Shown: in pieces, positions 4,389 to 57,525 of the stretch | Layout: each line of letters starts with the position of its first letter | Position numbering within the stretch: position 1 is the stretch's first letter | NCBI RefSeq assembly: GCF_004403305.1 | Contig: NZ_SOHE01000083.1 | Location: forward strand, 1 to 64,000 | Direction of reading: 5' to 3' | DNA length: 64,000 bases | Source: Cryobacterium frigoriphilum | GTDB lineage: Bacteria > Actinomycetota > Actinomycetes > Actinomycetales > Microbacteriaceae | The notes under the pieces: generated by a model | What the model was told of the DNA's origin: nothing | Database searches by the model: none | The model's input: the letters and a program-made list of their open reading frames with translations, nothing else | Position numbers and translations under genes: made by a program

Positions 4389-4424
4389 CGCGCTGCCGCC
4401 CGCGCTACCACCCGCGCTACCACC
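4389..4424. repeat. 12-bp x 3 tandem duplication spanning the rsmE stop codon
   Basis: Three contiguous 12-mers: CGCGCTGCCGCC at 4389, then CGCGCTACCACC at 4401 and again at 4413. The rsmE stop codon (4417-4419) lies inside the gene-proximal copy, and the next copy repeats the same bases. The 83-bp gap to the HIT gene holds little else. Confidence 0.85.
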
Positions 4425-5226
4425 GGTGCAGCGCCGCGTTGAGCACCGCGAGGGCGGCCGGGCCGGCCGTCGAGGTGCGCAGCACGGTGTCGCCCAGGCG
4501 AACGGATGTCGCACCGGCGCCCTGCAGAACGCTGATCTCCGCCGGGGACAGGCCACCCTCGGGGCCGACGACGAGCACGATGTCACGCGCATCAGCGGCA
4601 TCAGCGGCATCAGCGGCATCAGCGGCATCAGCATCAGCGGCGGCGAAACGAACCGCCACCTCGGTCAGCCGCAGCGTCGCTGTCGGCTCGAGCAGCAGCA
4701 TCCGCGTCTCGCTCGCAAGTACGGCGAGCTGCTTCGTGCTGGACAGCTCGGCGACCGAGGGCAGCCACGCGCGAATCGACTGCTTGCTCGCCTCGCGCAC
4801 GATGCTGGTCCAGCGTTCGCGGCCCTTGGCGACCTTGGCGCCCTCCCAGCGGGAGACCGAACGCCCGGCGAGCCACGGCACGATGCCGTCAATGCCGAGC
4901 TCGGTAGCCGCCTGAACCGCCATCTCGTCGCGGTCGCCCTTGGCGAGGGCCTGCACGAGACGGATGCGCGGACTCGCCGCCGGGGTCACGGTCGCCGTCT
5001 CCACGCGCAGGGTCAACGACGCACCCCCCGGGGACTGGCCGCCCTGCGTGCTCTCGACGGTCCCGTTCAGTACCAGACCGGAACCGTTGCCGAGCAGCAG
5101 CGGCTCCCCCGGGTGCACCCGGCTGACCGTGACGGCGTGCCGGGCCTCAGGCCCGCCGAGCGTGACGAGCGCACCCGGCAGGCAGCCCTCGGGCGTGAGG
5201 TCGCCATCGAGATAGAAGTGAGCCAT
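4417..5226 (-). CDS. rsmE: 16S rRNA (uracil-1498-N3)-methyltransferase RsmE
   Basis: 269 residues. An N-terminal PUA-like part is followed by a SPOUT methyltransferase domain that forms a trefoil knot. The SAM-binding knot shows GPEGG at 221-225 and RLGDTVLRTSTAGPAAL at 243-259. It methylates U1498 in the decoding region of 16S rRNA using SAM. An Ala/Asp repeat (about 196-213), coded by a 9-bp tandem repeat, sits just before the knot strand and is not a family feature. The gene follows dnaJ by 14 bp, the standard dnaJ-rsmE pair. Confidence 0.95.
   Translation of the reverse strand: MAHFYLDGDLTPEGCLPGALVTLGGPEARHAVTVSRVHPGEPLLLGNGSGLVLNGTVESTQGGQSPGGASLTLRVETATVTPAASPRIRLVQALAKGDRDEMAVQAATELGIDGIVPWLAGRSVSRWEGAKVAKGRERWTSIVREASKQSIRAWLPSVAELSSTKQLAVLASETRMLLLEPTATLRLTEVAVRFAAADADAADAADAADAADARDIVLVVGPEGGLSPAEISVLQGAGATSVRLGDTVLRTSTAGPAALAVLNAALHRW
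4591..4641. repeat. 9-bp tandem repeat inside rsmE
   Basis: ATCAGCGGC occurs four times in a row from 4591 and ends with shortened copies. It encodes an A-D-A type repeat at about residues 196-213 of RsmE, just before the SAM-binding GPEGG strand. The 9-bp period preserves the frame, so this is a candidate length-variable site. Confidence 0.9.
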
Positions 5227-5240
5227 CTGGTCGCGAAACC

Positions 5241-6350
5241 CTAGCCGCGGAACCGGTCGCGGATCTTCGCAAACAGGCCCTGCTGAAACTGGCTGAGCGA
5301 CGGGGCCGGCGCCGCGTGGCGGGCGGCGAACTGTTCGATGAGGTCGCGTTCCTTGTGGTCGAGGCGGGTTGGGGTGAGCACCTGCACCCCCACGCGCAGG
5401 TCGCCGCGCCCGGCGCCGCGCAGACGCGTCACACCGCGCTCCTTGATCGTGAGCACCTCGGAGCTTTGCACTCCGGCCTTGATCTCGACCTCGATGTCGC
5501 CGTCGAGGGCGGCGACCGTGACGGTCGTTCCGAGAATGGCGGAGGTCATCGGCACCTCGAGGGTGCAGAGCAGATCGTCACCGTCGCGGCTGAAGACGTC
5601 GTGGTGGCGCACCTTCATCTCGAGGTACAGGTCACCGTTGGGTCCGCCGGCCGGGCCGACCTCACCGCTGCCGGGCATCTGCAGGCGCAGGCCGGTGTCG
5701 ACGCCGGCCGGAATGTCGACCGGCACGGTGCGGCGCGCGCGAACACGGCCCTGACCCTGGCAGGTCATGCAGGGCGTGGCGATGATGGTGCCGTAGCCGC
5801 GGCAGGAGCCGCAGGGGCTCGACGTCATGACGTTGCCGAGCAGCGAGCGCACCGCGCGCTGGATGCTGCCGGTGCCGTGGCAGATGTCACAGGTGATCGG
5901 CGAGGTGCCCGGACGGCAGCAGGTGCCGGAGCAGGTCTCACACATGATCGCGGTGTCGACCTCGAGATCGCGGTGGGTGCCGAAGATGATCTCGTCGAGG
6001 TCGAGTTCGACCCGAATCAGGGCGTCCTGGCCGCGTTCGCGGCGTGACCTGGGCCCACGGGTGCTGCCGCCGCCACCGCCGAAGAAGGTCTCGAAGATGT
6101 CGCCGAAGTTACCGAAGTTGCCGGCACCACCGCCGTCGAAGCCGGCCTGCGGGCCGAGGTCGTACTTCTGGCGCTGCTTGGCGTCACTCAGCACGTCGTA
6201 GGCGTGCGTGACGAGCTTGAATTTCTCCGAGGCATCCGCCCCGGGATTCACGTCGGGGTGCAGCTGACGTGCCAGGCGTCGATACGCCTTCTTGATCTCG
6301 TCGGTGGTGGCTTCCCGGCTCACGCCGAGGACTTCGTAATGGTCAGCCAA
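5241..6350 (-). CDS. dnaJ: Molecular chaperone DnaJ
   Basis: 369 residues. The J domain carries HPD at 31-33, followed by a Gly/Phe-rich linker (about 70-100), a zinc region with four cysteine motifs (about 137-201) and a C-terminal substrate-binding part. The first cysteine motif reads CETCSGTC, the variant seen in actinobacterial second DnaJ proteins paired with hrcA. It stimulates DnaK ATPase and delivers substrates. It is probably co-transcribed with hrcA (38 bp upstream) and so falls under CIRCE/HrcA heat-shock control. Confidence 0.96.
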   Translation of the reverse strand: MADHYEVLGVSREATTDEIKKAYRRLARQLHPDVNPGADASEKFKLVTHAYDVLSDAKQRQKYDLGPQAGFDGGGAGNFGNFGDIFETFFGGGGGSTRGPRSRRERGQDALIRVELDLDEIIFGTHRDLEVDTAIMCETCSGTCCRPGTSPITCDICHGTGSIQRAVRSLLGNVMTSSPCGSCRGYGTIIATPCMTCQGQGRVRARRTVPVDIPAGVDTGLRLQMPGSGEVGPAGGPNGDLYLEMKVRHHDVFSRDGDDLLCTLEVPMTSAILGTTVTVAALDGDIEVEIKAGVQSSEVLTIKERGVTRLRGAGRGDLRVGVQVLTPTRLDHKERDLIEQFAARHAAPAPSLSQFQQGLFAKIRDRFRG

Positions 6351-6388
6351 AAGTGGCTCTCCTTGGGTCGTTAATCAATTCTGCTTGG

Positions 6389-7462
6389 TCAGTTCTCGCC
6401 CAGTAGGCGGGACAGGTAGCGGGCCACGGCGCGAACCGCGGCCATGTTGTTGGAATAGTCCATGCGGGTGGGGCCAAGCACGCCGAGGCGGGCCAGGTTG
6501 CCGTGGGAGGTGTAGCCGCTGGAGAGAACGGATGTCTCGCCCAGCCCAAACGGGGCGTTCTCGCGCCCGATGCTCACCGACACACCGCGACCGCCCGAGA
6601 CACCCCGCTGGTCGGTGGCCATCTCGCCGAACAGGCGCAGCAGCACCACCTGCTCTTCGATGGCCTCGAGCACGGGGTAGACGCTGCCCTGAAAATCTTC
6701 CTCGGTGCGCACGAGGTTCGCGGCGCCCGCCATCACGAGCTTGTCCTGACGGTTGGCGCCCACCTGCTCGCCGAGGGTCGTGGTGATCAGGCCCACGGCA
6801 TCCGTCAGTTCGGGAGCACCAATCCATACGAGGGCGGCCAGCGCCAGGGCGGCTTCCTGCATGCTCAGGCCCACCGCGGTGGTATTGAATCGGGCGCGCA
6901 GCTCACCGAGCGTGACCTCGTCGATGCGGCCGGGAAGGTCGACCACACGCTGTTCGACGCCGCCCGAGTCGGTGATCAGCACCGAGAGGATGCGGGTCTG
7001 CACCGGACCCGTCATTTCGGTGCTGCCGTCGCTGGTGCCGAGGAGCACGAACTCGATGTGGCGCACCTTGGCCCGCGACAGGGACGGATACTGCACGAGA
7101 GCCACCTGATGGGTCAGCTGCGAGAGCAGGCGCACGCTGCGGGCGAGCACATCATCGAGGTCGCCCGAGTGACCGAGGAACGTTTCAATGGCCTGGCGCT
7201 GGGCCGGCGTGAGCGGGCGCAGGTCGGCGAGGTGGTCGACGAAGACGCGATAGCCCTTGTCGGTCGGAATGCGGCCCGACGACGTGTGGGGTGCCGCGAT
7301 CAGCTCTTCTTCTTCGAGCAGGGCCATGTCGTTACGGATGGTCGCCGCCGAGACCCCGAAGGCGTGGCGGTCAACGATGGACTTCGAACCGACGGGTTCA
7401 CGCGAGGCTACGTAGTCCTGCACGATGACGCGCAGAACGTCGAGTCCACGATCGGATACCAC
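6389..7462 (-). CDS. hrcA: Heat-inducible transcription repressor HrcA
   Basis: 357 residues. A winged-helix DNA-binding N-terminus (about 1-75, with SAATIRNDMALLEEEELI as recognition region) is followed by the GAF-like dimerisation part. HrcA binds CIRCE and represses chaperone genes when GroEL is free. The GTG start at 7462 is preceded by GAGGAGG about 8 bases upstream. A CIRCE element lies 52 bp upstream, which supports autoregulation of the hrcA-dnaJ operon. Confidence 0.96.
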   Translation of the reverse strand: MVSDRGLDVLRVIVQDYVASREPVGSKSIVDRHAFGVSAATIRNDMALLEEEELIAAPHTSSGRIPTDKGYRVFVDHLADLRPLTPAQRQAIETFLGHSGDLDDVLARSVRLLSQLTHQVALVQYPSLSRAKVRHIEFVLLGTSDGSTEMTGPVQTRILSVLITDSGGVEQRVVDLPGRIDEVTLGELRARFNTTAVGLSMQEAALALAALVWIGAPELTDAVGLITTTLGEQVGANRQDKLVMAGAANLVRTEEDFQGSVYPVLEAIEEQVVLLRLFGEMATDQRGVSGGRGVSVSIGRENAPFGLGETSVLSSGYTSHGNLARLGVLGPTRMDYSNNMAAVRAVARYLSRLLGEN

Positions 7463-7484
7463 GACAATCGCCTCCTCGGGCTCG

Positions 7485-7502
7485 GCTGCTGCTGCTGCTG
7501 CT
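7485..7502. repeat. (GCT)6 trinucleotide run in the hrcA leader
   Basis: Six perfect GCT units (AGC on the hrcA strand) lie between the CIRCE element and the hrcA ribosome-binding site. The run is in the untranslated leader, so length changes would alter leader length and not protein. Confidence 0.85.
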
Positions 7503-7513
7503 GCCTACGTTTA

Positions 7514-7540
7514 CTGGCACTCGCATTGAATGAGTGCCAA
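7514..7540 (-). promoter_or_regulatory. CIRCE operator (HrcA-binding inverted repeat)
   Basis: CTGGCACTC, a 9-base spacer, then GAGTGCCAA. The arms differ from a perfect inverted repeat at one base and fit the CIRCE consensus TTAGCACTC-N9-GAGTGCTAA. A candidate -10 element TATGAT for the hrcA promoter lies directly upstream on the minus strand (7540-7545), so bound HrcA would cover the transcription start. Confidence 0.93.
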
Positions 7541-7641
7541 TCATATCGCGGCCGGCTGGGTGCTACCCATTGCCCGCCGGCAAGACGGCGCGTAGCTTTA
7601 GCGGTGTAAGCGCTTGTCCACCATTCGTTGGAAGGACCCTG

Positions 7642-8079
7642 ATGAGCGATCCGAATGCTCAAACCCCGAACGACCCGAATCTGTCCGGTCGGCCGCCCCA
7701 GCCGCCGTATCAGTCGCAGTACCCAGCCACCCCCGCTGGGGCCGCAGCCGGGCTGACCCCGGCCAAAGACATCGAGTGGGGGTCTTACGCCCATCTCGGC
7801 GGCCTGCTCGGATTCGTGCCGGCCCTGATCATCTGGATTGTCTTCAAGGACCGCGGCCGGTTCACCGACGCCGAGGGCAAGGAAGCGCTGAACTTTCAGA
7901 TCACGGTTCTCATCGGCTACGTCGCCTCGACGGTGCTGACCGTCGTCACCTTCGGGCTGCTGAGCTGGCTGTTCACGGTCATCTGGATCGTCAGCGCGAT
8001 CTTTTCGATCATGGGATTTCTCGCCGCCAAGGAGGGACGCAACTATCGGTACCCGTTCGCGCTGCGCCTGATCAAGTAG
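7642..8079 (+). CDS. DUF4870 domain membrane protein (first of two)
   Basis: 145 residues from the ATG at 7642, which follows GGAAGGA. A longer in-frame reading from 7534 is unlikely because it would cover the hrcA promoter region. An N-terminal Pro/Gln-rich stretch (about 1-40) is followed by a DUF4870/Tic20-like region with hydrophobic segments near 48-67, 85-105 and 110-130. The motif EGKEALNFQ is typical. The function is unknown. A paralog follows 127 bp downstream. The stop codon lies in a 21-bp tandem duplication. Confidence 0.85.
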   Translation: MSDPNAQTPNDPNLSGRPPQPPYQSQYPATPAGAAAGLTPAKDIEWGSYAHLGGLLGFVPALIIWIVFKDRGRFTDAEGKEALNFQITVLIGYVASTVLTVVTFGLLSWLFTVIWIVSAIFSIMGFLAAKEGRNYRYPFALRLIK

Positions 8080-8100
8080 CCCCTGCGCTTGATCACGTAG
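8062..8100. repeat. 21-bp period duplication of a gene end including its stop codon
   Basis: The last 18 bp of the first DUF4870 gene (CTGCGCCTGATCAAGTAG) are repeated after a CCC spacer as CTGCGCTTGATCACGTAG. Sixteen of 18 positions are identical, and the second copy also ends in an in-frame TAG. Confidence 0.85.
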
Positions 8101-8206
8101 TCAGGCAGCACGGAGCCGCGACGCGACGGGGTGGCCGCACACACGCAACGGCTATTCTGGGGTCGCCTGCCAAACCCGTGGGTTCAACCTCAAGGAGAAG
8201 ACCCCC

Positions 8207-8617
8207 ATGTCTACGACACCCCCGCCGAACGGCCCCCCTACTCCGCCGATGCCCCCGCAGCCCCCGATGTACGGCGCGGCACCGGTCACCCCGATGAATC
8301 CGTCCGACGAGAAGATGTGGGCGACCCTCATTCACGTCGGCGGGGTTCTCGGCTATTTCCTGCCGTCCCTCATCGGATACATCATTTTGAAGGACCGCGG
8401 CCCCTTCATCCGATCCCACGCGATGACGGCGCTGAACTTTCAGCTCACCATCCTGATCGTGACCGTCGTCGGTCTCGCCCTGACCGCGATCTTCATCGGG
8501 TTCATCGTGCTGTTCGCGGCGTGGATACTCAATATCGTCTTCAGCATCATGGCCGCCCTGGCCGCCAACCGCGGCCAGTTCTACACGTACCCGCTCACCA
8601 TCAAGTTTCTGAGTTGA
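8207..8617 (+). CDS. DUF4870 domain membrane protein (second of two)
   Basis: 136 residues, starting at an ATG preceded by CAAGGAG. It has the same plan as its upstream neighbour: a Pro-rich N-terminus (about 1-30) and then a hydrophobic DUF4870 region with HAMTALNFQLTILIV in the position of EGKEALNFQITVLIG. The two genes are clearly paralogs from tandem duplication followed by divergence. The function is unknown. It converges with hemW, and its stop codon starts a 17-bp repeat array. Confidence 0.85.
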   Translation: MSTTPPPNGPPTPPMPPQPPMYGAAPVTPMNPSDEKMWATLIHVGGVLGYFLPSLIGYIILKDRGPFIRSHAMTALNFQLTILIVTVVGLALTAIFIGFIVLFAAWILNIVFSIMAALAANRGQFYTYPLTIKFLS

Positions 8618-8671
8618 TTCAGTTTCTGGGCTGATTCAGTTTCTGAGCCGACTAAGTTTCTGAGCTGAGCG
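8604..8671. repeat. 17-bp x 4 tandem array over the end of the second DUF4870 gene
   Basis: Four 17-bp units of the form AGTTTCTGRGYTGATTC begin at 8604, 8621, 8638 and 8655. The DUF4870 stop (8615-8617) is in the first unit, and later units repeat the same end. The array fills the 58-bp convergent gap to hemW. Confidence 0.88.
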
Positions 8672-8675
8672 TGAG

Positions 8676-9902
8676 CTAGTCCGGCAGGACGCGGCGCACG
8701 ACCGCGTCGGCGAGCAGCCGGCCACGCAGGGTCAGCTCGAGGTTGCCGCCGATGGCGGCGCGCGCGTTCACGAGCTCGTCGGCGATCAGGCCGGCGATCT
8801 CGTGGCGGCCGTGCGGGGTGAGCGACGCAATCGGTATTCCGGTGCGGATGCGGCTCAGCAGCAACACGCGCTCGACCTCCCGGGTCTCGGCGTCGAGCGT
8901 CTCGCGGCCGACGGCGGGCGAGTGCCCGGCGAGCACCCGTTCGGCGTAGGCCGCGGGGTGCTTGGCGTTCCACCAGCGCACGCCGCCGACGTGGCTGTGG
9001 GCGCCCGGGCCCACACCCCACCAGTCGTGACTGCGCCAGTAGGCGAGGTTGTGGCGGGACTCGTGGGAGACATCCGTCGCCCAGTTACTGACCTCGTACC
9101 AGTGGAAGCCGGCGGCGCCGAGCAGTTCGTCGGCGAGTTCGTAGAATTCGGCCTGGGTGTCGTCGTCGATCGCGGCGATGTCGCCGCGGCGAATCTGGCG
9201 GGCGAGCTTGGTGCCCTCCTCGACGATGAGCGAGTACGTGCTGATGTGGTCGGGGGCCTGGTTGATGGCGTACTCGAGGCTCGTGCGCCAATCGGCGACG
9301 GTCTCCCCCGGGGTGCCGTAGATGAGGTCGAGACTCACGTCGAGGCCGGCATCGCGGGCCCACTGCACCACCAGCGGCACCCGCTCGGGGTCGTGGGTGC
9401 GCTCGAGGGTCGCGAGCACGCGCGGCACCGCCGACTGCATGCCGAACGATACCCGGGTGAAGCCCGCGTCGGCGAGGCCCTGCAGATAGCCGGCGTCGAC
9501 GGAGTCGGGGTTGGCCTCGGTCGTGACCTCGGCGCCGGGCACGAAGCCCCACTGGTCGCGCACCGCGTGCAGCATGCGGGTGAGGTCGCCGACCGGCAGC
9601 AGGGTGGGGGTACCGCCGCCGAAGAACACGGTCGAGACCGGGCGGGCAGGCACGCCAGACTGGGCGAGCACGCGGCCGGCCGATTCGACCTCGAGCACGG
9701 CCTGGCTCGCGTAGTCGCTCTGCTTCACACCGCGCAGTTCGGTCGCCGTGTAGGTGTTGAAGTCGCAGTAGCCGCAGCGCACCCGGCAGAAGGGCACGTG
9801 CAGGTAGACGCTGAACTCGCGCTCGGTGGCGTCAACCGCGGCGGAGGCGGGCAGAAGCCCGTCGAGTGGGGCAGGGTCGCCGACGGGGTGTGGTCCGGCC
9901 AC
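8676..9902 (-). CDS. hemW: Radical SAM heme chaperone HemW
   Basis: 408 residues. The radical SAM cluster motif is C39-x3-C43-x2-C46 followed by D-F. The phenylalanine after the last Asp distinguishes HemW from true HemN oxygen-independent coproporphyrinogen oxidases, which have a fourth cysteine there. FFGGGTPTLL (about 93-102) is the SAM-binding glycine motif, and a HemN C-terminal domain follows. HemW is thought to bind and insert heme, so older coproporphyrinogen oxidase labels should be avoided. GTG start. DUF1990 lies 4 bp upstream. Confidence 0.92.
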   Translation of the reverse strand: MAGPHPVGDPAPLDGLLPASAAVDATEREFSVYLHVPFCRVRCGYCDFNTYTATELRGVKQSDYASQAVLEVESAGRVLAQSGVPARPVSTVFFGGGTPTLLPVGDLTRMLHAVRDQWGFVPGAEVTTEANPDSVDAGYLQGLADAGFTRVSFGMQSAVPRVLATLERTHDPERVPLVVQWARDAGLDVSLDLIYGTPGETVADWRTSLEYAINQAPDHISTYSLIVEEGTKLARQIRRGDIAAIDDDTQAEFYELADELLGAAGFHWYEVSNWATDVSHESRHNLAYWRSHDWWGVGPGAHSHVGGVRWWNAKHPAAYAERVLAGHSPAVGRETLDAETREVERVLLLSRIRTGIPIASLTPHGRHEIAGLIADELVNARAAIGGNLELTLRGRLLADAVVRRVLPD

Positions 9903-9906
9903 GGCT

Positions 9907-10554
9907 TTAGAGCGCCCCGACCGGGTGCAGGGCCTTGAGGTAACGCTGGGTGAAACGGTTCTGCTGCAGGCGCATGATCGGCCAGACCAGCCGGAACTTC
10001 CAGGTGCTCAGCCGTGAGAACGCACGGATGGTCAGCCAGACCGAGTCGTCGTCGCGCTTGTCGACGATGAAGGACTCCTCGCCGCTGGCCGGATGCCCCG
10101 CCATGGTGCCGTAGGCAAAGCCCACCCGGGTGGGTTCGGCGATCACATAGACGACCCGCACCGGAGCCGTGACGGTGAACGGCCGCACGTGAATGGTCAG
10201 CTCGGCGGTCATGCCGTTGACGATGTAGGGGGTGCCGTCGTCGGCGAAGGTGTCCTCGGCGACGGTCTTGATGGCATCCGTTTTCGGAGCCCCGTCGGCG
10301 CCGAACTCGACCCCGGTGTACTGCACGCCGGTTCCGGTTCCGAGGTCGGTCACGGTCATGCCGCTGCCCCGCTGCACGCCCCAGGTCATGAGTAACTTCG
10401 TGGCCGCGTGAAAGCGCTCGTCGCCGCTGCCGAGGCGCACCGCGACCTCGATCGGGCGGTAGCCCTTGGGCGGGTACGTCATCAGGTCGGGGGCGAGGGT
10501 GCCACCGATGGCGCCGTAGGTCACGGCCGATTCGGTGAAGGTGGAGCGGCGCAT
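9907..10554 (-). CDS. DUF1990 family protein
   Basis: 215 residues with the DUF1990/UPF0548 pattern: an early FTESAVTYGAIGG segment, PPKGYRPIEVAVRLGSGDERF near 28-48, and a C-terminal part ending in a basic MRLQQNRF segment. The family is common in actinobacteria and has no established function. It lies between lepA (4 bp upstream) and hemW (4 bp downstream), so the three are probably one transcript. Confidence 0.85.
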   Translation of the reverse strand: MRRSTFTESAVTYGAIGGTLAPDLMTYPPKGYRPIEVAVRLGSGDERFHAATKLLMTWGVQRGSGMTVTDLGTGTGVQYTGVEFGADGAPKTDAIKTVAEDTFADDGTPYIVNGMTAELTIHVRPFTVTAPVRVVYVIAEPTRVGFAYGTMAGHPASGEESFIVDKRDDDSVWLTIRAFSRLSTWKFRLVWPIMRLQQNRFTQRYLKALHPVGAL

Positions 10555-10558
10555 CCGT

Positions 10559-12412: not shown

Positions 12413-12523
12413 AGTTCGTCTATTCTTCCATGCTTCGTGCGCGTTGGCCGTCGCCCGGGTGTTCGCCGCACGCCGCGGGTATCTCGCTCACGAGTGGGCG
12501 CAAACGGTGCCAGTGGCCGGAGT

Positions 12524-13753: not shown

Positions 13754-13782
13754 GCTTCCACCCTAGGCACGCAAGCGCTGCC

Positions 13783-16902: not shown

Positions 16903-17070
16903 CCTCGGTGGAACCTTTCGGCAAACTGGCACTGACGGCTAGGTGATCATGCGGGCGCCGAGCGCCCTGAATGCCCTAACCTACCGTCACAGTCTGGAAT
17001 GACGCCGACCGTCGGCCGGGTGCGGGCTGTGCGGCGCCTCCGCGCTGGCAGTCGCCGGCGCAGCCGGTCA

Positions 17071-17139
17071 GCGCCGCCCGTCAGCGCCGCCCGTCAGCGC
17101 CGCCCGATAAGCGGTGCTATTTGCGGGTGCTATTTGCGC
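17071..17139. repeat. Two 13-bp tandem arrays, one spanning a stop codon
   Basis: GCGCCGCCCGTCA is repeated three times from 17071, and after four bases GTGCTATTTGCGG/C is repeated twice (17114-17126 and 17127-17139). The second array contains the stop codon of the 54-aa membrane protein gene (17130-17132) and duplicates its last codons. It fills most of the gap downstream of that gene. Confidence 0.88.
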
Positions 17140-18998: not shown

Positions 18999-19039
18999 AT
19001 CGACGGTCGACGCGGTATCGACGCGGTATCGACGCGGTG
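18987..19039. repeat. 11-bp tandem array continuing the end of the DUF3097 gene
   Basis: The gene ends TCGGCGCGGTGA, and TCGACGCGGTA then occurs at 19007 and 19018 and TCGACGCGGTG at 19029. The gene end is thus the diverged first unit of the array. Confidence 0.8.
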
Positions 19040-19683: not shown

Positions 19684-19770
19684 CTGCGCGGTACCTACGC
19701 CGCTGCGCGGTAGGCGCGCCTACCGCGTAGCGGCGTAGGTACCGCGCAGGTACCGCGCAGGTACCGCGCA
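19684..19770. repeat. 66-bp palindromic element centred on GGCGCGCC, with 11-bp tandem tail
   Basis: Bases 19684-19749 form an uninterrupted palindrome in which 32 of 33 pairs match, centred at 19716/19717 within GGCGCGCC. The arm contains CTACGCCGCTGCGCGGTA. From 19738 the unit GGTACCGCGCA is repeated three times. Related sequence fills most of 19600-19780, the convergent gap between cspA and the Lrp gene. No gene is seen there. Confidence 0.9.
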
Positions 19771-19802
19771 GCTAGAACAGGGCCGCCTCAGGCGAGAGGG
19801 AG

Positions 19803-20388: not shown

Positions 20389-21630
20389 ATGTTGCCACTG
20401 TCGTCACATCAGCCGTCTTCTTCACACCTTGAAACCCTTGCCGTACACGCGGGGATGGACGGGGTCGCCGCCTCGGGTTCGCACGTTCCCGTCATCGATC
20501 TCTCGAGCACGAATCCGTTACCGGGCGTGGAGTCTGGCGGCGACAGCTACGAGAATCTCGCGACCGGCGGCACCCTGGCGCCCGGAGACTCTGCCGTGTA
20601 TCAGCGACTCTGGCAGCCGGGCGTCGCCCGCTTCGAGACCGCTCTCTCGGCGCTCGAGGGCAGCGCCGGCACCGTCGCGTTCGCGACCGGCATGGCCGCC
20701 CTGACCGCCGTGCTGATCGCCACGGTCACCGCCGGCCGCCCACACATTGTCGCGCTGCGCCCGATCTACGGCGGCACCGACCACGTGCTCGCCACGGGAC
20801 TGCTGGGAACCACCGTCACCTGGACGGATGCCGCGGGAGTTGCCGCCGCGATCCAGCCCAACACCGGGCTCGTCATTCTCGAAACCCCGGCCAACCCGAC
20901 GCTCGAACTCACCGATATCGGCGCCGTCGTGGCCGCCGCCGGCCCGGTGCCGGTGCTCGTCGACAACACCTTCGCCACGCCGGTGCTGCAGCGTCCCCTC
21001 GAACTGGGCGCGACGCTCGTGCTGCACAGCGCCACCAAATACCTCGGCGGCCACGGCGACGCGATGGGCGGCACGGTATCCGGCTCAGACGAGTGGATGG
21101 TGCGGCTGCGGCAGGTGCGCGCCCTGACCGGTGGGCTGCTGCATCCGCTCAACGCCTACCTGCTGCACCGGGGGCTGCGCACCCTGCCGGTGCGGGTGCG
21201 GGCGCAGCAGGCATCCGCTGCCCAGATCGCCGAACGGCTCGTTGGCCACCCGGCTCTCGTGCGCGTGCTCTACCCCGGGCTGCCCGGCCAGGACCCGCAG
21301 GGGCTCATCGGCCGGCAGCTGGCGGGCGGCGGCGCACTTCTGGCGCTCGATGTGGTCGGCGGTTTCGCTGGCGCGGTGCGTTTCACCGAGGGCTGCCGAC
21401 TGATCGAGCACGCGGTGTCGCTCGGCGGCGTGGATTCCCTGGTGCAGCATCCGGCCTCGCTCACGCACCGACCGGTGCAGGCCGATAAGCGGCCCGGCGC
21501 GGGCATCGTGCGGTTGTCGATCGGGCTGGAACACGTCGATGACCTGATGACCGACATTCTGACGGCCCTCGATGGGGTGCTCGAGGCGCAACCGGCGCCG
21601 GCCGCGGAGTTCGCGACCGCGGGCTCCTAG
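20389..21630 (+). CDS. Cys/Met metabolism PLP-dependent enzyme (methionine gamma-lyase-like)
   Basis: 413 residues from the ATG at 20389. The PLP lysine is K217 in LHSATKYLGGHGD, D192 in VDNTFATP binds the pyridine nitrogen, and YQR (71-73) matches the phosphate-binding Y-x-R of the neighbouring subunit. This is the trans-sulfuration fold (cystathionine gamma-synthase/lyase or methionine gamma-lyase). The precise reaction is not fixed by these motifs. The ribosome-binding site is weak. Divergent Lrp control is likely. Its TAG is the first stop in a 16-bp repeat array shared with the convergent helicase. Confidence 0.88.
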   Translation: MLPLSSHQPSSSHLETLAVHAGMDGVAASGSHVPVIDLSSTNPLPGVESGGDSYENLATGGTLAPGDSAVYQRLWQPGVARFETALSALEGSAGTVAFATGMAALTAVLIATVTAGRPHIVALRPIYGGTDHVLATGLLGTTVTWTDAAGVAAAIQPNTGLVILETPANPTLELTDIGAVVAAAGPVPVLVDNTFATPVLQRPLELGATLVLHSATKYLGGHGDAMGGTVSGSDEWMVRLRQVRALTGGLLHPLNAYLLHRGLRTLPVRVRAQQASAAQIAERLVGHPALVRVLYPGLPGQDPQGLIGRQLAGGGALLALDVVGGFAGAVRFTEGCRLIEHAVSLGGVDSLVQHPASLTHRPVQADKRPGAGIVRLSIGLEHVDDLMTDILTALDGVLEAQPAPAAEFATAGS

Positions 21631-21705
21631 CTGTGGCCCAGACTAGCTAGGACTCAGACCAGCTGTGGCCCAGGCTAGCTGCGACCCAGACTAACTACGA
21701 CCCAG
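21626..21705. repeat. 16-bp x 5 tandem array containing the stop codons of two convergent genes
   Basis: Five contiguous 16-bp units of the form (A/C)CYAGCTRBGRCYCAG start at 21626, 21642, 21658, 21674 and 21690. The first contains the TAG of the PLP enzyme (21628-21630) and the last contains the stop of the helicase (21691-21693). The whole convergent gap is therefore made of this repeat. Confidence 0.92.
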
Positions 21706-24399: not shown

Positions 24400-24570
24400 C
24401 CTGGCTGGGCGCAACTACCGCGCAGCGGCGCAACTACCGCGTGGCGTCACCGATTGGGGTCCGCAGACGGACTCGCGCCGGGCTACGCGGCAGTAACGCC
24501 GCTGCGCGGTGGGCGCGCCTGCGGCGCAGCGGCGTTACTACCGCGCACCGCCCCTACCGCGCACCGGCGA
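24400..24570. repeat. Second palindromic element (GGCGCGCC-centred) plus flanking repeats
   Basis: Arms at 24486-24507 and 24524-24545 pair at 21 of 22 positions around a 16-base centre that again contains GGCGCGCC (24512-24519). The arm carries AACGCCGCTGCGCGG, shared with the element at 19684. Upstream, GCGCAACTACCGCG is repeated with a 19-bp period (24409 and 24428). It lies in the convergent gap between the SGNH gene and the siderophore operon, and no gene is seen. Confidence 0.85.
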
Positions 24571-39017: not shown

Positions 39018-39056
39018 CTGGCAGCGGATGCCGCACCCGGCATCCGCTTGGTGGGC

Positions 39057-39508
39057 GCTGCGCCGCTGCGCGGGTGTTGTGAGGGGTCTTGCTTCGCGGG
39101 TGACTCGTCAGGCTCGACAACCGGCGCCACTGCGCGGTACCTGCGGCGCTGCGCGGTACCGGCGCCGCAACGCGGTACCTGCGGCGCTGCGCGGTACCTG
39201 CGCCGGTGCGCGGTACCTGCGCCACCCCGACCGGAGCCCGGACCCGAGCTGCGCGGGTACTGCGCCGCTACGCGGGTGGCACGCCTACCGCGCAGCGGCG
39301 CACTACCCGCGCAGCTCCCGCAGGAGCGGGTGACGGGTCTCGTTGCGCGGGTGCTGCGCCCCTGCGCGGTACGTACGCCGCTACGCGGGTGCTGCGCAGG
39401 GTCGTGCTACGCGGTAGCTGCGCCGCTGCGCGGGTGCTGCGCCGCTGCGCGGGTAGTTGCGAGAGGTCTCCCCGCGCGGGTGACTCGACGGGCTCGACAA
39501 CCGGCGCC
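39057..39508. repeat. 450-bp repeat locus: 72-bp direct repeats around a palindromic element
   Basis: Copies at 39057-39128 and 39436-39508 form a direct repeat ending in CTCGACAACCGGCGCC. Between them lie many units of CGCCGCTGCGCGGGT and GCGCGGTACCTGCG. A 72-bp imperfect palindrome (39246-39317) has the architecture of those at 19684 and 24486 but a decayed centre, GGCACGCC. It lies in the convergent gap between the biotin carboxylase and lipoprotein genes. An open frame crosses it but is low-complexity and not a gene. Confidence 0.85.
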
Positions 39509-39548
39509 GCACCACAACTCACGGCGTTCACTTGAACCACCTGACCAC

Positions 39549-47834: not shown

Positions 47835-47845
47835 TCCATCAGAAC

Positions 47846-47884: not shown

Positions 47885-47912
47885 CGTGCGCTTCGTGCTG
47901 AAGGGGTGTGGC

Positions 47913-48164
47913 TTATTTGCCGAAGCCCTTGTAACGCGAGTTGAACTTCTCCACGCGTCCGGCGGAGTCCATGATGCGCTGCTTGCCCGTGTAGAACGGG
48001 TGCGACTCGGAGGAGATTTCCACGTCGATGACCGGGTACGTGGTGCCGTCTTCCCACTCGATGGTCTTCTTGCTGGAGACCGTGGAGCGGGTCAGGAACG
48101 TCGCGCCGGAGGCGAGGTCGCGAAAGACCACGAAGTTGTAATCGGGGTGAATGTCAGTCTTCAT
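47913..48164 (-). CDS. rpmE: 50S ribosomal protein L31 type B
   Basis: 83 residues from the ATG at 48164, preceded by GAGGAAA. It has the type B insert ([17 protein letters not shown]) and no zinc-ribbon cysteines, so it is the zinc-independent C-minus paralog. Such paralogs are often Zur-controlled, but no convincing Zur box was seen in the upstream 85 bp. Confidence 0.95.
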
Positions 48165-48277
48165 GAAAATTTCCTCTACGCACTTCAGGTGGACAGACTT
48201 GTAACTGGCCACAGTGCTGTTCGATGTTCGGGGAGGCCAAACGGCCAACTACTTACGATAGCAGGCGCAACCGGGCG

Positions 48278-48299
48278 TTGCTACACGGTTGCTACACGG
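48278..48299. repeat. 11-bp x 2 duplication spanning the stop codon of the ABC ATPase gene
   Basis: TTGCTACACGG occurs twice in a row (48278 and 48289). The second copy holds the gene's stop codon (48292-48294), so the gene end is exactly duplicated beyond the stop. Confidence 0.85.
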
Positions 48300-49074: not shown

Positions 49075-49124
49075 ACAGCCATGCTATCTGGCCACCCGCA
49101 ACGTGAATCACGCCGCGGGCGGCC

Positions 49125-49160
49125 GAGCGACAGCAGGAGCTGCAACAGGAGCTACAGCAG
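49125..49160. repeat. 12-bp x 3 tandem duplication spanning the glgA stop codon
   Basis: GAGCGACAGCAG, GAGCTGCAACAG and GAGCTACAGCAG are contiguous from 49125. The glgA stop (49152-49154) is in the gene-proximal unit. The outer copies have lost the stop (CAG and TCG on the coding strand). Confidence 0.87.
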
Positions 49161-50333: not shown

Positions 50334-50437
50334 GCGCTAAAGCTAGCGCGGCCGGGCGACGGATACATCCCCACGCGAGCGCGGCACATCCCCCGATGGG
50401 TGGCCGGGGACCCCCGGATGCCTCTACTGTAAGGAAC

Positions 50438-51682: not shown

Positions 51683-52398
51683 TCCCGTCGCTCCTCGCCC
51701 CCGCCCCCGCCCCCGTGCCCGACCTGCTGTCCCGCTCACTGAGTCCCTACCCGCAGGGGCCCGGCGCGTTTCTGGTCGTGCTCGACGCTGACTCGACCCT
51801 GATCCGCGATGAGGTCATTGAGCTTCTGGCGGATGCCGCGGGATCACGCACACACGTCGCCGCGATCACCGAGGCGGCCATGCGCGGCGAACTCGACTTC
51901 GCCGAAAGCCTGCGGGAGCGCGTCGCAACCCTCGCCGGGCTTCCGGTGAGCGTCTTCGCCGACGTGGGACGCATCATCCGCAAGACACCCGGTGTGCACG
52001 AGCTGATTGACGGCCTGCACGCGAGCGGCAGCCGGGTCGGAGTGGTGTCGGGCGGCTTTCACGAGCTGCTCGACCCGCTCGCCGCCGAGCTCGGTCTGGA
52101 TCACTGGCGGGCCAACCGCCTCGAGGTGCGCGACGGCCACCTGACCGGCGGACTGATCGGCCCGATCATCGACGCCGCCGCCAAGGCGCAGGCCCTCACG
52201 GAGTGGGCTCACGCCGAGGCGATCCCGCTGCCCCGCACCGTGGCGGTCGGCGACGGCGCCAACGACCTCGACATGATGAAGGTGGCCGGCCTCGCCGTGG
52301 CCTTCAACGCGAAACCGCGGGTTAAACGGCAGGCGGATGTCGTGATCGACGCCCTCGACCTGAGCCAGATTCTGCCGCTCCTCGGTCTGCGCTCCTAG
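51679..52398 (+). CDS. serB: Phosphoserine phosphatase SerB
   Basis: 239 residues, GTG start overlapping the glgC stop (GTGA). HAD motif I is DADST (about 37-41), motif II is the Ser of [11 protein letters not shown], motif III is the Lys near AAAKAQAL, and motif IV is [11 protein letters not shown]. It hydrolyses phosphoserine in serine synthesis. No ACT domain is present, unlike mycobacterial SerB2. The N-terminus has a short PAPAP repeat coded by a 6-bp run. Confidence 0.93.
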
Positions 52399-52483
52399 CC
52401 CCGCGCATCCGCTTCTGCGGTCCCGGCCCGCGCTCGGAGAAGGACACCTGCCGGCCATCAGGACAAGTCTGCTGTGTGGCCGC

Positions 52484-52580
52484 GTGGCCAATTCAGGAGA
52501 TCCGCTCGGTGAAAGCGCGGCCGCGGTACTGGTCCGGCGTTCCTGACGCTACCCACCGGAGAATCTCCTGAATTCGCCAC
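52484..52580. repeat. 97-bp segment bounded by 18-bp inverted repeats
   Basis: GTGGCCAATTCAGGAGAT at 52484-52501 pairs with 52563-52580 at 17 of 18 positions. The ends read GTGGCSAATTCAGG, and 61 bp lie between the arms. There is no coding content. The spacing is too long for a simple terminator, and the form is that of a small non-coding element. Confidence 0.8.
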
Positions 52581-52600
52581 CGGGCGGAGGTCACCCCGGC

Positions 52601-52645
52601 ACCGGCAGTACGAGAACCGACAGTACGAGAACCGACAGTACGAGA
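52601..52645. repeat. 15-bp x 3 tandem array next to the fabG stop
   Basis: ACCGACAGTACGAGA occurs at 52616 and 52631, with ACCGGCAGTACGAGA at 52601. The array ends six bases from the fabG stop codon (52652-52654). Confidence 0.9.
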
Positions 52646-52651
52646 AGTGTC

Positions 52652-53359
52652 CTAGTGGCCCATGCCGAGACCACCGTCGACGGGGATGACCGCGCCGGAG
52701 ATGTAGGCGGCGTCGTCGCCGGCGAGCCAGGTGACGACCCGGGCGACCTCGGTCGGGGTCGCGAAGCGGTTCGCCGGGATATTGCGCTTGTATTCGGCCT
52801 GCTGGGCCTCGGGCAGGGCGGCCGTCATGTCCGTCTCGATGAAGCCGGGTGCGACGACGTTCGCCGTGATGCCGCGTGAGCCGAGCTCCCGGGTGACCGA
52901 TCGCGCGAGGCCGACGAGGCCGCTCTTGGAGGCGGCGTAGTTGACCTGTCCGGCCGAGCCGTAGAGGCCGACGACGCTCGAGATGAGTACGATACGCCCG
53001 AATCGGGCCTTGAGCATGCCCTTGGACGCCCGCTTCACGACACGGAAGGCGCCGCTCAGGTTCGTGTCGATGACCGAGGTGAAGTCCTCGTCGGACATGC
53101 GCATGAGCAGCGTGTCCTTGGTGATGCCGGCGTTGGCCACGACAACCTCGACCGGGCCGAGGGCCGCTTCGATCTGCGTGAAGGCCGCGTCGATCGACGC
53201 CGCATCGGTGACGTCGGCGCGCACGGTGAGGCTTCCCGCGGGCCCCTCGCCGGAGCGGGACGTGACGGCGACGCGGTGGCCCTGGGCGACAAACTCTGCG
53301 GCGATGGCGAAACCGATGCCACGGTTGCCTCCGGTGACGAGAACGGTGCGAGCGGACAA
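52652..53359 (-). CDS. fabG: 3-oxoacyl-ACP reductase FabG (short-chain dehydrogenase)
   Basis: 235 residues from a TTG at 53359, with GGGAAG six bases upstream. The frame is open further but would overlap the divergent DUF3099 gene and adds nothing of family character. The Rossmann motif TGGNRGIG is at 9-16, NAG at 76-78 and the catalytic Ser128, Tyr141 and Lys145 follow. It reduces beta-ketoacyl-ACP in fatty-acid elongation. The product is close in size to mycobacterial FabG1. Confidence 0.92.
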   Translation of the reverse strand: MSARTVLVTGGNRGIGFAIAAEFVAQGHRVAVTSRSGEGPAGSLTVRADVTDAASIDAAFTQIEAALGPVEVVVANAGITKDTLLMRMSDEDFTSVIDTNLSGAFRVVKRASKGMLKARFGRIVLISSVVGLYGSAGQVNYAASKSGLVGLARSVTRELGSRGITANVVAPGFIETDMTAALPEAQQAEYKRNIPANRFATPTEVARVVTWLAGDDAAYISGAVIPVDGGLGMGH

Positions 53360-53492
53360 ATTGAGCTTCCCATCAGGTGAGTCGGGCCCGGGACCCGGCT
53401 GGGAATTGCGTCCGGAGGTGCCCGCGGATGCCCAACGAGACGTATTCTTGTAAGTGGTGCAGTTGCACCACAACCCCCTAACGATAGCCGAC

Positions 53493-53843
53493 ATGAAACA
53501 GCAGTCGATAACTTCCCTCCCGCTCTCCCCCGAGGAGGAACGACGCCGTCGCATGATCAAGTATTCGCTCGCTATGGGCGTGCGCGTGGTCTGTATTCTG
53601 TTGATGCTCGTCGCCCAGGGCTGGTGGCTGCTGCTCTGTGCCCTGGGCGCCATTGTGCTTCCGTATGTGGCCGTGGTCATCGCCAACGTGCAGGTCAGCC
53701 CGCCGCAGGCTCCGGTGCTGCGGCCCGGCGGCGTGGAAATCTACCGCGGCGACGACACCGGCGGTTCCGCGGGTTCGGCCCGCGGCGGCTACGACGCCGG
53801 CAGCGACACCGGCGACATCTACAAGCCCGAGGGCGGCAAGTGA
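53493..53843 (+). CDS. DUF3099 domain membrane protein
   Basis: 116 residues from the ATG at 53493. A charged N-terminus (SPEEERRRRMIKYSLAMGVR) leads into two close membrane helices (about 28-65), and a Gly/Asp-rich tail follows (GGYDAGSDTGDIYKPEGGK). DUF3099 is a small actinobacterial family of unknown function. It overlaps the next gene by 4 bp and diverges from fabG. Confidence 0.87.
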   Translation: MKQQSITSLPLSPEEERRRRMIKYSLAMGVRVVCILLMLVAQGWWLLLCALGAIVLPYVAVVIANVQVSPPQAPVLRPGGVEIYRGDDTGGSAGSARGGYDAGSDTGDIYKPEGGK

Positions 53844-54070
53844 TCGGTCTGGGTTCGCCCGCGACGGACACCTGTTCCCGCGCCGGCTGCCGCGATGCGG
53901 CCACCTGGCGACTCGACTGGCGCAACCCCCGCATTCACGCCGAAGACCGGGTGAAGACCTGGGTCGCCTGCCCCGCGCACGTCGACTACCTGCGCGAGTT
54001 CCTCGCCGCCCGTGACTTTCCCCTCACCGTACGTCTTCTCGAAACAACGGATACGGAGGCCACCCCATGA
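53840..54070 (+). CDS. Small cysteine-containing protein, function unknown
   Basis: 76 residues, GTG start inside the DUF3099 stop (GTGA), ending in an ATGA overlap with the SURF1 gene. Overlaps on both sides argue that it is real. Cysteines in TCSRAGC (about 11-17) and CPAH (about 46-49) could make a small zinc site. Similar short genes occur between DUF3099 and SURF1 in related actinobacteria. No function is known. Confidence 0.75.
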   Translation: MIGLGSPATDTCSRAGCRDAATWRLDWRNPRIHAEDRVKTWVACPAHVDYLREFLAARDFPLTVRLLETTDTEATP

Positions 54071-54909
54071 AGGAATGGAAGTTCGCCTTCACCCGCCGCT
54101 GGGCCGGGTACCTCGCCCTCGTGATCGTCTTCGCGGCGGTGTGCTCGGGCCTCGGGGTCTGGCAGCTCGCCCGCCGGGACGAAGCCCTCGTCGAACTGTC
54201 GAAGATCGACGCCAACTTCGACTCGGCTCCGGTGCCCCTCGATGCCGCCCTCAGCACGCTGACCTCGTTCTCGGAGTCCCAGAAGTGGCTGCCGGTCGAG
54301 ATGACGGGCACCTACCTCGTCGCAGACGAGTTGCTCGTGCGCAATCGGCCCCTGAACATCAACCCCGGCTTCGAGGTACTGACCCCGCTTCGCCTCGCCG
54401 ACGGCACGGTCTTCATCGTCAACCGCGGCTGGCTGCCGACCGGGCAGGAGCAGGACGCCCCCGACGTCGTGCCGGCACCCCCGACGGGAACGGTGACCGT
54501 CACGGCCCGGCTCAAGGCCGGCGAACCGACACTCAACAACCGCACCGCCAGCGGCAACCAGATCGCCACCATCAACCTGGAAGATGTCGCCGAGCGCCTC
54601 GACCAGCCCACCTATACCGGCGCCTACGGCCTGATGGACACCGAGACGCCCTCGGTCGCCGAGCGCCCCACCGCCGTGGTCAAGCCCGTACGCGACGAGG
54701 GACCACACCTGTCGTACGCGTTCCAGTGGTTCGTGTTCGGCCTGCTCGCCTTCATCGGGCTCGGCTGGGGCCTGCGGGAGGAATACCGGGTCGTGAACGC
54801 GGCCGACCCTGAGGAACGTGAGCGCGCCGATGAGCGGGCCCGAAAGCAGGCCGCCAAGCCCAAGAGCGACGCCGACATCGAAGACGCCCTGCTCGACCGC
54901 CAGCTCTAA
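54067..54909 (+). CDS. SURF1 family cytochrome oxidase assembly protein
   Basis: 280 residues. Two membrane helices lie near the ends (about 12-32 and 218-238) with a periplasmic domain between, as in all SURF1 proteins. Family motifs are LGVWQLARRDEAL, VLTPLRLADGTVFIVNRGWLP and HLSYAFQWFVFG. It aids heme delivery to, or assembly of, aa3-type cytochrome oxidase, which fits ctaA 7 kb away. It is the last gene of a three-gene unit of overlapping frames. Confidence 0.93.
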   Translation: MKEWKFAFTRRWAGYLALVIVFAAVCSGLGVWQLARRDEALVELSKIDANFDSAPVPLDAALSTLTSFSESQKWLPVEMTGTYLVADELLVRNRPLNINPGFEVLTPLRLADGTVFIVNRGWLPTGQEQDAPDVVPAPPTGTVTVTARLKAGEPTLNNRTASGNQIATINLEDVAERLDQPTYTGAYGLMDTETPSVAERPTAVVKPVRDEGPHLSYAFQWFVFGLLAFIGLGWGLREEYRVVNAADPEERERADERARKQAAKPKSDADIEDALLDRQL

Positions 54910-54917
54910 CGTCGGCA

Positions 54918-54980
54918 GCACACGGCACACGGCACACAGCACCCAGAACCCAGAACCCAGCACCCAGCACCCAGCACCCA
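54918..54980. repeat. 7-bp x 9 tandem array after the SURF1 gene
   Basis: Nine contiguous 7-mers, GCACACG changing gradually to GCACACA, GAACCCA and GCACCCA, begin eight bases after the SURF1 stop. The stepwise drift between units suggests repeated slippage. Confidence 0.9.
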
Positions 54981-54988
54981 GGCGCAGA

Positions 54989-55022
54989 AAAGCCCGGTCA
55001 GGACGAATCCTGACCGGGCTTT
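54989..55022. terminator. Bidirectional terminator between SURF1 and ABC-F genes
   Basis: A perfect 15-bp stem (AAAGCCCGGTCAGGA) with a CGAA loop, between convergent genes. Confidence 0.92.
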
Positions 55023-55038
55023 CTGCTTCCGGGTGCGG

Positions 55039-56637
<1,599 letters not shown>

Positions 56638-56707
56638 AGCAATTGTCCGTTCAGAAGGGGGGTTGTGAGGGGAAAAAAGAGCGGGCCGACTGGTCCAACT
56701 CTCTATT

Positions 56708-57316
56708 CTACAGGAGGGCGCCGCGCAGGGTTTTTTCGAGCCAGTCCCGGTAGGTGTCGGGCGACCAGCCCACGTCGCGCACGAGGGTGCGATAGCACTG
56801 CGGATGCGCGAGGGCCCAGATCGCGGCGGCGGCCTCGTGATCGCTCAGACCGACCCGCAGGGAGCGCCTCGAGCGCAGCGCCGCGGCGTCCTCTCCGAAA
56901 TCGTGCAGCCGTGCCGTGTCGCGGCGCCGTTCGAAGGCGGCAACGTCGGGGTCGACCGCGGCCGCCTCGCTCACAATCTGCTGGATGCCGGCGGTACGTT
57001 CGTTGACGAGGGCGCAGCCATCCGCCAGCGCCCGAATGATGTCGCTCGCCGAGTGCGCGTCATCGATGCGCTGTCGCATGGCAGCGGCCACTGCATCGGG
57101 TGAGCCGCTCGCGGCGGCCGCCCGCTCGAGCAGTGCCGCCAGAAGTTCAGCCTTGGAACCGACCGAGTTGTAGATGGTCTGCACGGCCACGCCGGCCTCG
57201 GTCGCGATCGCGCCAATCGAGGTCTTCACGTAACCGTGCTGCAGCATGAGTCGACCGGCCGCCCGAACGATATCCTGCCGGGTGCCGGCGGCCTGGGCTT
57301 CACGTCGCGCGTTCAT
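56708..57316 (-). CDS. TetR family transcriptional regulator
   Basis: 202 residues. The N-terminal helix-turn-helix (about 8-55) reads IVRAAGRLMLQHGYVKTSIGAIATEAGVAVQTIYNSVGSK, the standard TetR pattern. The C-terminal ligand part is unlike well-known members. No adjacent transporter or enzyme gene shares its promoter, so the target is not evident. It lies 70 bp upstream of the ABC-F gene on the same strand. Confidence 0.92.
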   Translation of the reverse strand: MNARREAQAAGTRQDIVRAAGRLMLQHGYVKTSIGAIATEAGVAVQTIYNSVGSKAELLAALLERAAAASGSPDAVAAAMRQRIDDAHSASDIIRALADGCALVNERTAGIQQIVSEAAAVDPDVAAFERRRDTARLHDFGEDAAALRSRRSLRVGLSDHEAAAAIWALAHPQCYRTLVRDVGWSPDTYRDWLEKTLRGALL

Positions 57317-57391
57317 GATGTCACTCTCATGGTATTAGCATATCAGTTCTACTGAGTGGATCGGCACTCTACCCAGCGCTTCGGACAGCAG

Positions 57392-57432
57392 AACGCCCCG
57401 GGGCCTGCCTGAGGCAGAATTCCCGGGGCGTT
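57392..57432 (-). terminator. Hairpin terminator downstream of the suf operon
   Basis: An 11-bp perfect stem AACGCCCCGGG (57392-57402 with 57422-57432) encloses a smaller CTGCC/GGCAG hairpin. It is placed after sufT and its repeat array. Confidence 0.75.
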
Positions 57433-57450
57433 GCAGTATTACTGGTTACC

Positions 57451-57525
57451 GGTTATGCCAGAACCGGTTATGCCAGAACCGGTTATGCCAGAACCGGTTA
57501 TGCCAGAACCGGTTATGCCAGAACT
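57451..57525. repeat. 15-bp x 5 tandem array abutting the sufT stop codon
   Basis: GGTTATGCCAGAACC is repeated at 57451, 57466, 57481 and 57496, with a last copy at 57511 whose end runs into the sufT stop (57524-57526). The first four copies are identical, which implies recent expansion. Confidence 0.93.

What the first reader, a model, noticed from the sequence alone, without database searches (positions are those of the whole stretch)
4389..57525. Gene ends with tandem duplications that include the stop codon
At least eight unrelated genes have their last bases, stop codon included, within a short tandem array that continues into the non-coding DNA: rsmE (12 bp x 3), DUF4870-1 (21 bp x 2), DUF4870-2 (17 bp x 4), the 54-aa membrane gene (13 bp x 2), DUF3097 (11 bp, gene end plus 3), PLP enzyme and helicase (16 bp x 5, shared), the ABC ATPase (11 bp x 2) and glgA (12 bp x 3). 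The dnaJ end has a weaker 14-bp pair (5227-5254, 11 of 14). Other arrays start within a few dozen bases of a stop (sufT, fabG, SURF1, DUF4097-like, biotin carboxylase). Periods outside genes are free of the three-base rule, while the arrays inside genes have periods of 9 or 15 bp. Slippage that repeatedly takes in the stop codon, retained because extra copies are harmless or supply spare stops, would explain it. Most actinobacteria lack MutS/MutL, which could make such events frequent.
Basis: partly seen in the sequence, partly recalled or inferred. Interest (0 to 1): 0.85.

Follow-up and report, generated by a model that had tools for sequence, protein, structure and literature searches.

The report
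Short tandem repeats after gene ends
Several genes in this bacterium end inside short repeated DNA, but the repeats pile up in the loosely constrained DNA just after genes and take in the stop signal in passing, so the pattern is real and striking yet mostly ordinary.

Summary
In the window (Cryobacterium, close to C. melibiosiphilum) 9 of 64 stop codons lie in a tandem alignment scoring at least 12; 0 of 1884 shuffles do. In 733 kb of this genome: 37 of 629 stops, 14 of 626 starts, 8 of 1663 internal positions.

The stop codon is not the target. Array coverage steps up at the stop and continues for about 120 nt into the 3' spacer. Units placed at random in the same spacers would include about as many stops: 22.0 to 27.0 (±3.1) expected, 26 seen. 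The stop sits in the first copy in 48 of 53 cases, so proteins are untouched; only 15 of 53 periods are divisible by three, against spare stops.

Arrays turn over between sister species. MutS is missing from 30 of 30 relatives and 79 of 80 family members, array-poor ones included, so it does not explain the four-fold excess of arrays over other Microbacteriaceae. That excess remains open.

The parts
2335..2369 (-). 17-bp x2 duplication holding the ybeY stop in one copy and the called start of the next gene in the other
   Evidence: TRF; spanning score 10; gene ends of congeners; Pfam YbeY
3900..3958 (-). 15-bp x4 array over the HIT-gene stop, also inside the start region of the overlapping next gene
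   Evidence: TRF; spanning score 26; Pfam HIT
4386..4424 (-). 12-bp x3 array including the rsmE stop
   Evidence: TRF; score 21
8062..8100 (+). 21-bp imperfect pair including the stop of the first DUF4870 gene
   Evidence: 16 of 18 positions, score 12; Pfam
8604..8668 (+). 17-bp x4 array including the stop of the second DUF4870 gene; a 2-copy 17-bp array is present in C. melibiosiphilum
   Evidence: TRF; Pfam
17113..17138 (-). 13-bp x2 including the stop of the 54-aa gene; another 13-bp array lies at 17058-17106
   Evidence: TRF
19007..19038 (+). 11-bp x3 array starting 8 nt after the DUF3097 stop
   Evidence: TRF; inclusion of the stop not supported, score 8; Pfam
21627..21705 (.). 16-bp x5 array between convergent PLP-enzyme and helicase genes, with the helicase stop (clear) and the PLP stop (diverged copy); 2 copies in C. 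melibiosiphilum
   Evidence: TRF; Pfam
48277..48299 (-). 11-bp x2 including the ABC ATPase stop; no array at this gene in C. melibiosiphilum
   Evidence: TRF; Pfam
   Evidence: score 9, 13 of 15 positions
52601..52654 (-). 15-bp x3 array reaching the stop of a short-chain dehydrogenase (fabG-like) gene
   Evidence: TRF (52601-52646); spanning score 18; Pfam
54916..54981 (+). 7-bp x9 array starting 6 nt after the SURF1 stop
   Evidence: TRF; Pfam
57448..57526 (-). 15-bp x5 perfect array from the stop of the sufT-like gene towards a hairpin-like sequence; no array at this gene in C. melibiosiphilum
   Evidence: TRF (57448-57524); spanning score 42; Pfam FeS_assembly_P

Best explanation
These are young intergenic minisatellites (87 of 116 non-coding arrays have units of 11-19 bp), each made by local tandem duplication of whatever sequence was there, most likely by slippage or template switching. 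They survive where nothing is broken, chiefly the first ~120 nt after a gene. A duplication whose unit contains the stop leaves the protein unchanged because translation ends in the first copy, so stops are included about as often as chance placement in the 3' spacer predicts. Duplications inside genes survive mostly if divisible by three, and those over starts are mostly removed. Shown: positions, periods, first-copy rule, lack of unit similarity, turnover between sister species. Inferred: the molecular step (slippage), and that selection rather than mutation rate shapes the map.
For: Array coverage in own 0-2% inside genes beside long spacers (1-3% in the wider convergent set), 6-9% at the stop, 5-17% over the next ~120 nt, then near 0 in codirectional spacers; 0-2% in own divergent spacers. 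Within-spacer test: own 26 of 98 seen, 22.0, 24.2 or 27.0 (sd 3.1) expected with 0, 10 or 20 nt kept free before starts; congeners 25 of 69, 22.9-26.5; other actinobacteria 14 of 45, 14.1-16.3. Stop in first copy 48 of 53, 18.4 expected; periods mod three 15/19/19. Wholly coding arrays divisible by three: 148 of 161 in own, 131 of 143 in congeners. 91 of 102 non-coding arrays (period >=10) have no similar sequence elsewhere in the 733-kb sample. 11 of 15 array-bearing orthologous spacers have an array in one sister species only. No repeated stop-codon preference, no link to hairpins.
Against: In reconstructed spacers of 100 bp or more, own has more stop inclusion than uniform placement predicts (11 of 58 seen, 4.5 expected, sd 2.0); congeners do not clearly repeat it (5 of 30, 3.8 expected, sd 1.8). 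Whole-sample placement gives an excess under two of three rules (24 against 14.2, sd 3.5; 23 against 10.7, sd 3.1; but 24 against 20.0, sd 4.0, under the loosest). In own long codirectional spacers coverage is a little higher at 10-20 nt (12-14%) than at 40-60 nt (5-7%), on 43 edges. In congeners the step at the stop is faint in long spacers (2%). These can come from promoters in the far half of codirectional spacers, but a mild preference near stops is not excluded. Variation within a species was not testable.
Confidence: 0.8

Rival explanations
1. Mutational hotspot at gene ends: transcription termination, ribosome release or converging transcription raises the rate of tandem duplication just after stops, so the map reflects mutation rather than selection.
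For: In congeners convergent spacers under 200 bp hold 2.16-4.97 arrays per kb, codirectional ones 0.34-1.43 (score >=45); excess of stop inclusion in long own spacers (11 against 4.5, sd 2.0).
Against: In own, convergent and codirectional spacers under 200 bp are alike (1.64-4.39 against 1.65-3.24 per kb); within own convergent spacers coverage does not peak at the stop and stop inclusion there is 7 against 6.9; no association with hairpins.
Confidence: 0.13
2. Functional 3'-UTR elements: the copies supply back-up stop codons or binding sites and are kept by selection.
For: Arrays sit next to genes and some repeat a stop codon, in frame at rsmE.
Against: Only 15 of 53 stop edges have a period that would repeat the stop in frame; units are mostly unrelated; of 11 compared spacers with an array in own, 7 have none in the sister species; order relative to hairpins varies, 4 before and 4 after in own, 2 and 3 in congeners.
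Confidence: 0.04
3. Loss of MutS/MutL mismatch repair lets slippage run.
For: MutS_V and MutL_C are absent from 30 of 30 genomes.
Against: Array-poor congeners lack them too (G002 and G010), and MutS_V is absent from 79 of 80 Microbacteriaceae genomes although array density in a 25-locus sample of the family is about a quarter of this genome's. NucS is present in 30 of 30. MutS repairs loops of only a few bases, not 11-19 (recalled).
Confidence: 0.03
4. Assembly artefact of short reads.
For: The genome is a 93-contig draft.
Against: Similar density in genomes of one or two contigs (G007 1.30, G017 1.35, G005 1.41 per kb non-coding; but G016, two contigs, 0.52; contigs, densities).
Confidence: 0.02

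Closest known systems
Bacterial minisatellites / VNTR loci
   Same: Head-to-tail units, many between genes, presence or copy number differing between near relatives
   Different: Polymorphism within a species not tested here; dense compared with sampled Microbacteriaceae
Tandem repeats of archaeal Borg elements (PMC9879509; passages read)
   Same: Recently formed, nearly all units unique; divisible by three inside genes, 14-38% so between genes; [quoted passage not shown]
   Different: Borg repeats are perfect, A-enriched and on extrachromosomal elements; here many copies are imperfect, arrays are richer in G+C than their spacers (0.677 against 0.626) and lie on a bacterial genome
TAACTGA repeats of Beggiatoaceae (PMC4679880; start of abstract and passages read)
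   Different: One shared 7-bp unit, mostly pointing at starts; here units are mostly unrelated
MIRU-VNTR of Mycobacterium tuberculosis (PMC2734929; passages read)
   Same: Tandem units between genes in an actinobacterium, differing between related species
   Different: MIRUs are 40-100 bp repetitive sequences found at 41 places; here units are short and mostly locus-specific

Membership tests
Minisatellite / VNTR | Head-to-tail tandem units of about 7-60 bp | tested here: met
   TRF
Minisatellite / VNTR | Presence or copy number differs between close relatives | tested here: met
   Own against C. melibiosiphilum: 11 of 15 array-bearing spacers differ in presence; PLP/helicase spacer about 5 copies against 2
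Minisatellite / VNTR | Copy number varies between strains of one species | not testable with these tools
   The genome search holds one genome per species
MIRU | One dispersed family of related units | tested here: not met
   One group of 12 related arrays among 102; the other 90 are unlinked
Back-up (tandem) stop codons | Extra stops in frame | tested here: not met
   15 of 53 periods divisible by three
REP elements with RAYT (for the dispersed 19-bp family only) | Y1_Tnp (RAYT) transposase in the genome | tested here: not met
   PF01797 in 0 of 30 genomes; control genomes positive in 5 of 14

The most novel reading that the evidence does not exclude
Some Cryobacterium lineages carry an active process, explained neither by missing MutS/MutL nor by Ku, that keeps making 11-19 bp tandem duplications, visible mainly in 3' untranslated DNA, with a mild real preference for sequences around stop codons.
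Probability: 0.15. Interest if true: 0.55.

Novelty: new member of a known kind. Interest (0 to 1): 0.3.

Why it matters
It is a clean case of how selection filters tandem duplications: free after genes, mostly divisible by three inside them, rare at starts. The arrays could serve as strain markers for Cryobacterium. The four-fold excess over sampled relatives, and the strong differences among Cryobacterium species, make the cause of short tandem duplication in a MutS-less, NucS-bearing lineage testable. No paper on such arrays in Cryobacterium or Microbacteriaceae turned up in the two searches made for it (one paper listed in each, neither about such arrays by its title and abstract start), in an open-access library only.

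Tried and rejected
Whole-sample placement null: kept only as a crude test, because it ignores that promoters keep arrays out of part of each spacer. The near-edge profile seemed to show a 2.5-4 fold peak at stops; it mixes short and long spacers and was replaced by stratified and within-spacer tests. TAG enrichment at array-bearing stops, suggested by the window, is not there: 6 of 31 in own against 129 of 343 genes with 3' spacers of 40 bp or more (Fisher p=0.03, the opposite direction), 16 of 34 against 221 of 528 in congeners (p=0.59). Hairpin-primed slippage: spacers with arrays have a hairpin in 11 of 41 cases in own (others 42 of 142) and 11 of 30 in congeners (others 97 of 283), no difference. 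Ku end joining as cause: mixed. Ku-less G017 is array-rich (1.35 per kb) but Ku-less G015 and G016 are poor (0.36, 0.52), while Ku-bearing G002 and G010 have none in 60 kb each. Paper searches; passages read in four papers, of which PMC12817950 was not used.
Full report
What was checked. Its best named relative by RsmE is Cryobacterium melibiosiphilum Hh39 (85% identity); G003 is taken to be that genome because contig length and position agree. G003 is syntenic over the window except about 24.4-30 kb. Genes were called with a hexamer gene finder of my own, trained on this genome and used for all samples; stops are mechanical, starts less sure. Arrays come from TRF and from an ungapped tandem score that must span a given codon. 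Comparison groups: 18 congeners, 34-100 kb each; 25 loci of other Microbacteriaceae and 47 of other actinobacteria (numbers of loci), grouped by hand from record titles, so that at least one Microbacterium locus (L055) stayed in the second group. The eight named Cryobacterium loci were used only (13 arrays in 164 kb, 1.04 per kb non-coding) and for reading gene ends.

In the window 9 of 64 stops have a spanning score of at least 12; 0 of 1884 dinucleotide shuffles of gene ends from the whole sample do. In 733 kb of this genome 37 of 629 stops, 14 of 626 starts and 8 of 1663 internal positions reach it; in congeners 31 of 1067, 2 of 1072 and 12 of 2885; in other Microbacteriaceae 4 of 456, 2 of 463 and 5 of 1247. 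In Cryobacterium, then, gene ends stand well above starts and coding interior. This is not general: in the other actinobacteria stops (9 of 713) lie below coding interior (38 of 1975).

The stop codon is a passenger. Beside long spacers of this genome, array coverage is 0-2% inside genes, 8-9% at the stop and 5-17% over the next 120 nt; in codirectional spacers it then falls to 0-2%, and in divergent spacers it is 0-2%. In congeners the profile is lower and less clear: 2% at the stop in long spacers, 5% in convergent spacers of 40 bp or more, 0-4% in divergent ones. If each array's unit is placed at random in its own reconstructed spacer, reaching at most one unit into the gene, 22.0, 24.2 or 27.0 (each ±3.1) of 98 arrays would include a stop, for 0, 10 or 20 nt kept free before starts; 26 do. 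In congeners 25 of 69 do, against 22.9, 24.7 or 26.5 (±3.1); in the other two groups together 14 of 45, against 14.1 to 16.3 (±2.6-2.7) (the 20-nt case also). Results that point the other way: spacers of at least 100 bp in own give 11 of 58 against 4.5±2.0 (congeners 5 of 30 against 3.8±1.8), and placement over the whole sample gives 24 against 20.0±4.0, 24 against 14.2±3.5 or 23 against 10.7±3.1, by rule. Stratification shows that the first comes mainly from codirectional spacers (8 seen, 2.5-2.8 expected), less from convergent ones (3 seen, 1.7 expected) (score >=45); the former should carry the next gene's promoter in their far half (inference). In the same placement test starts are depleted: 3 alone against 15.1 expected under the middle rule.

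Why stops are tolerated. Of 53 stop edges in arrays assigned to a spacer (own and congeners), 48 have the stop in the first copy, where 18.4 are expected if it lay anywhere along the array. The protein is then unchanged. Periods leave remainders 0, 1, 2 in 15, 19 and 19 cases, so the copies were not kept as in-frame spare stops. Wholly coding arrays are divisible by three in 148 of 161 cases in own and 131 of 143 in congeners. At ybeY most congeners shown have the stop and what looks like the next start overlapping (ATGA); here a 17-bp duplication leaves the stop in one copy and the next gene's called start in the other (reading of the starts is mine).

Origin and age. 91 of 102 non-coding arrays of period 10 or more have no similar sequence elsewhere in the sample; the exception is one dispersed 19-bp family, which links 12 arrays. 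Between own and C. melibiosiphilum 41 orthologous spacers were compared: 7 have an array only in own, 4 only in the relative, 4 in both. Some window arrays, among them those of ybeY and the 54-aa gene, do not appear in this comparison (spacer too short or neighbours not matched one to one). Of the four shared, two keep the period (17 bp after the second DUF4870 gene; 16 bp in the PLP/helicase spacer, about 5 copies against 2), one holds the dispersed family, one has unrelated units.

Density and cause. Arrays per kb of non-coding DNA (score >=45): own 1.35, G003 2.08, other Microbacteriaceae 0.36, other actinobacteria 0.46; the 18 congeners together 0.75 (82 in 108.6 kb), unevenly (0 to 2.08, p=6e-5). 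Own exceeds other Microbacteriaceae 4.1-fold (p=2e-8), congeners exceed them 2.3-fold (p=0.003). The relatives' samples come mainly from the rsmE region, so this compares samples, not whole genomes. MutS_V is missing from 30 of 30 relatives and 79 of 80 Microbacteriaceae genomes, MutL_C from 30 of 30; NucS_C is present in 30 of 30. Ku does not follow density. The cause of the excess is open.

Known precedent. [quoted passage not shown] TAACTGA repeats of Beggiatoaceae overlap upstream stop codons in 13 sets (PMC4679880, passages). A MIRU-VNTR region lies between rnc and fpg1 in the M. tuberculosis complex, where other mycobacteria have a short spacer (PMC2734929, passages). The present arrays are a bacterial case of the same kind of thing.

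The odds of the hotspot rival went from 0.15 to 0.13; the rest is unchanged.

Noticed in passing
window 19690-19775, 24400-24560, 39040-39520; genome-wide: A dispersed G+C-rich palindromic repeat (core GCGCCGCTGCGCGG, one mismatch allowed) occurs 182 times in this genome against 34 for the reversed control and 137 against 39 in G003, fewer in the other congeners (20 to 92). In the 733-kb sample 44 of 45 copies are non-coding, with preferred spacings of 19 bp (direct, 12 pairs) and 26 bp (inverted, 6 pairs). No Y1_Tnp (RAYT) gene was found in 30 genomes, so it resembles REP elements without their usual transposase.
   Followed up: partly
window 3900-3958: A 15-bp array lies where the HIT gene ends and the next gene begins; if the called start is right, it is a protein repeat for one gene and ends the other.
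   Followed up: no
G002, G010, G011 against G003, G008, G005: Array density differs strongly among Cryobacterium species (0 to 2.08 per kb non-coding, heterogeneity p=6e-5) with no known cause.
   Followed up: partly
G037:C1:251858-253788: One of 80 Microbacteriaceae genomes has two MutS_V matches about 1 kb apart, a rare exception to the absence of MutS-like proteins in this family.
   Followed up: no
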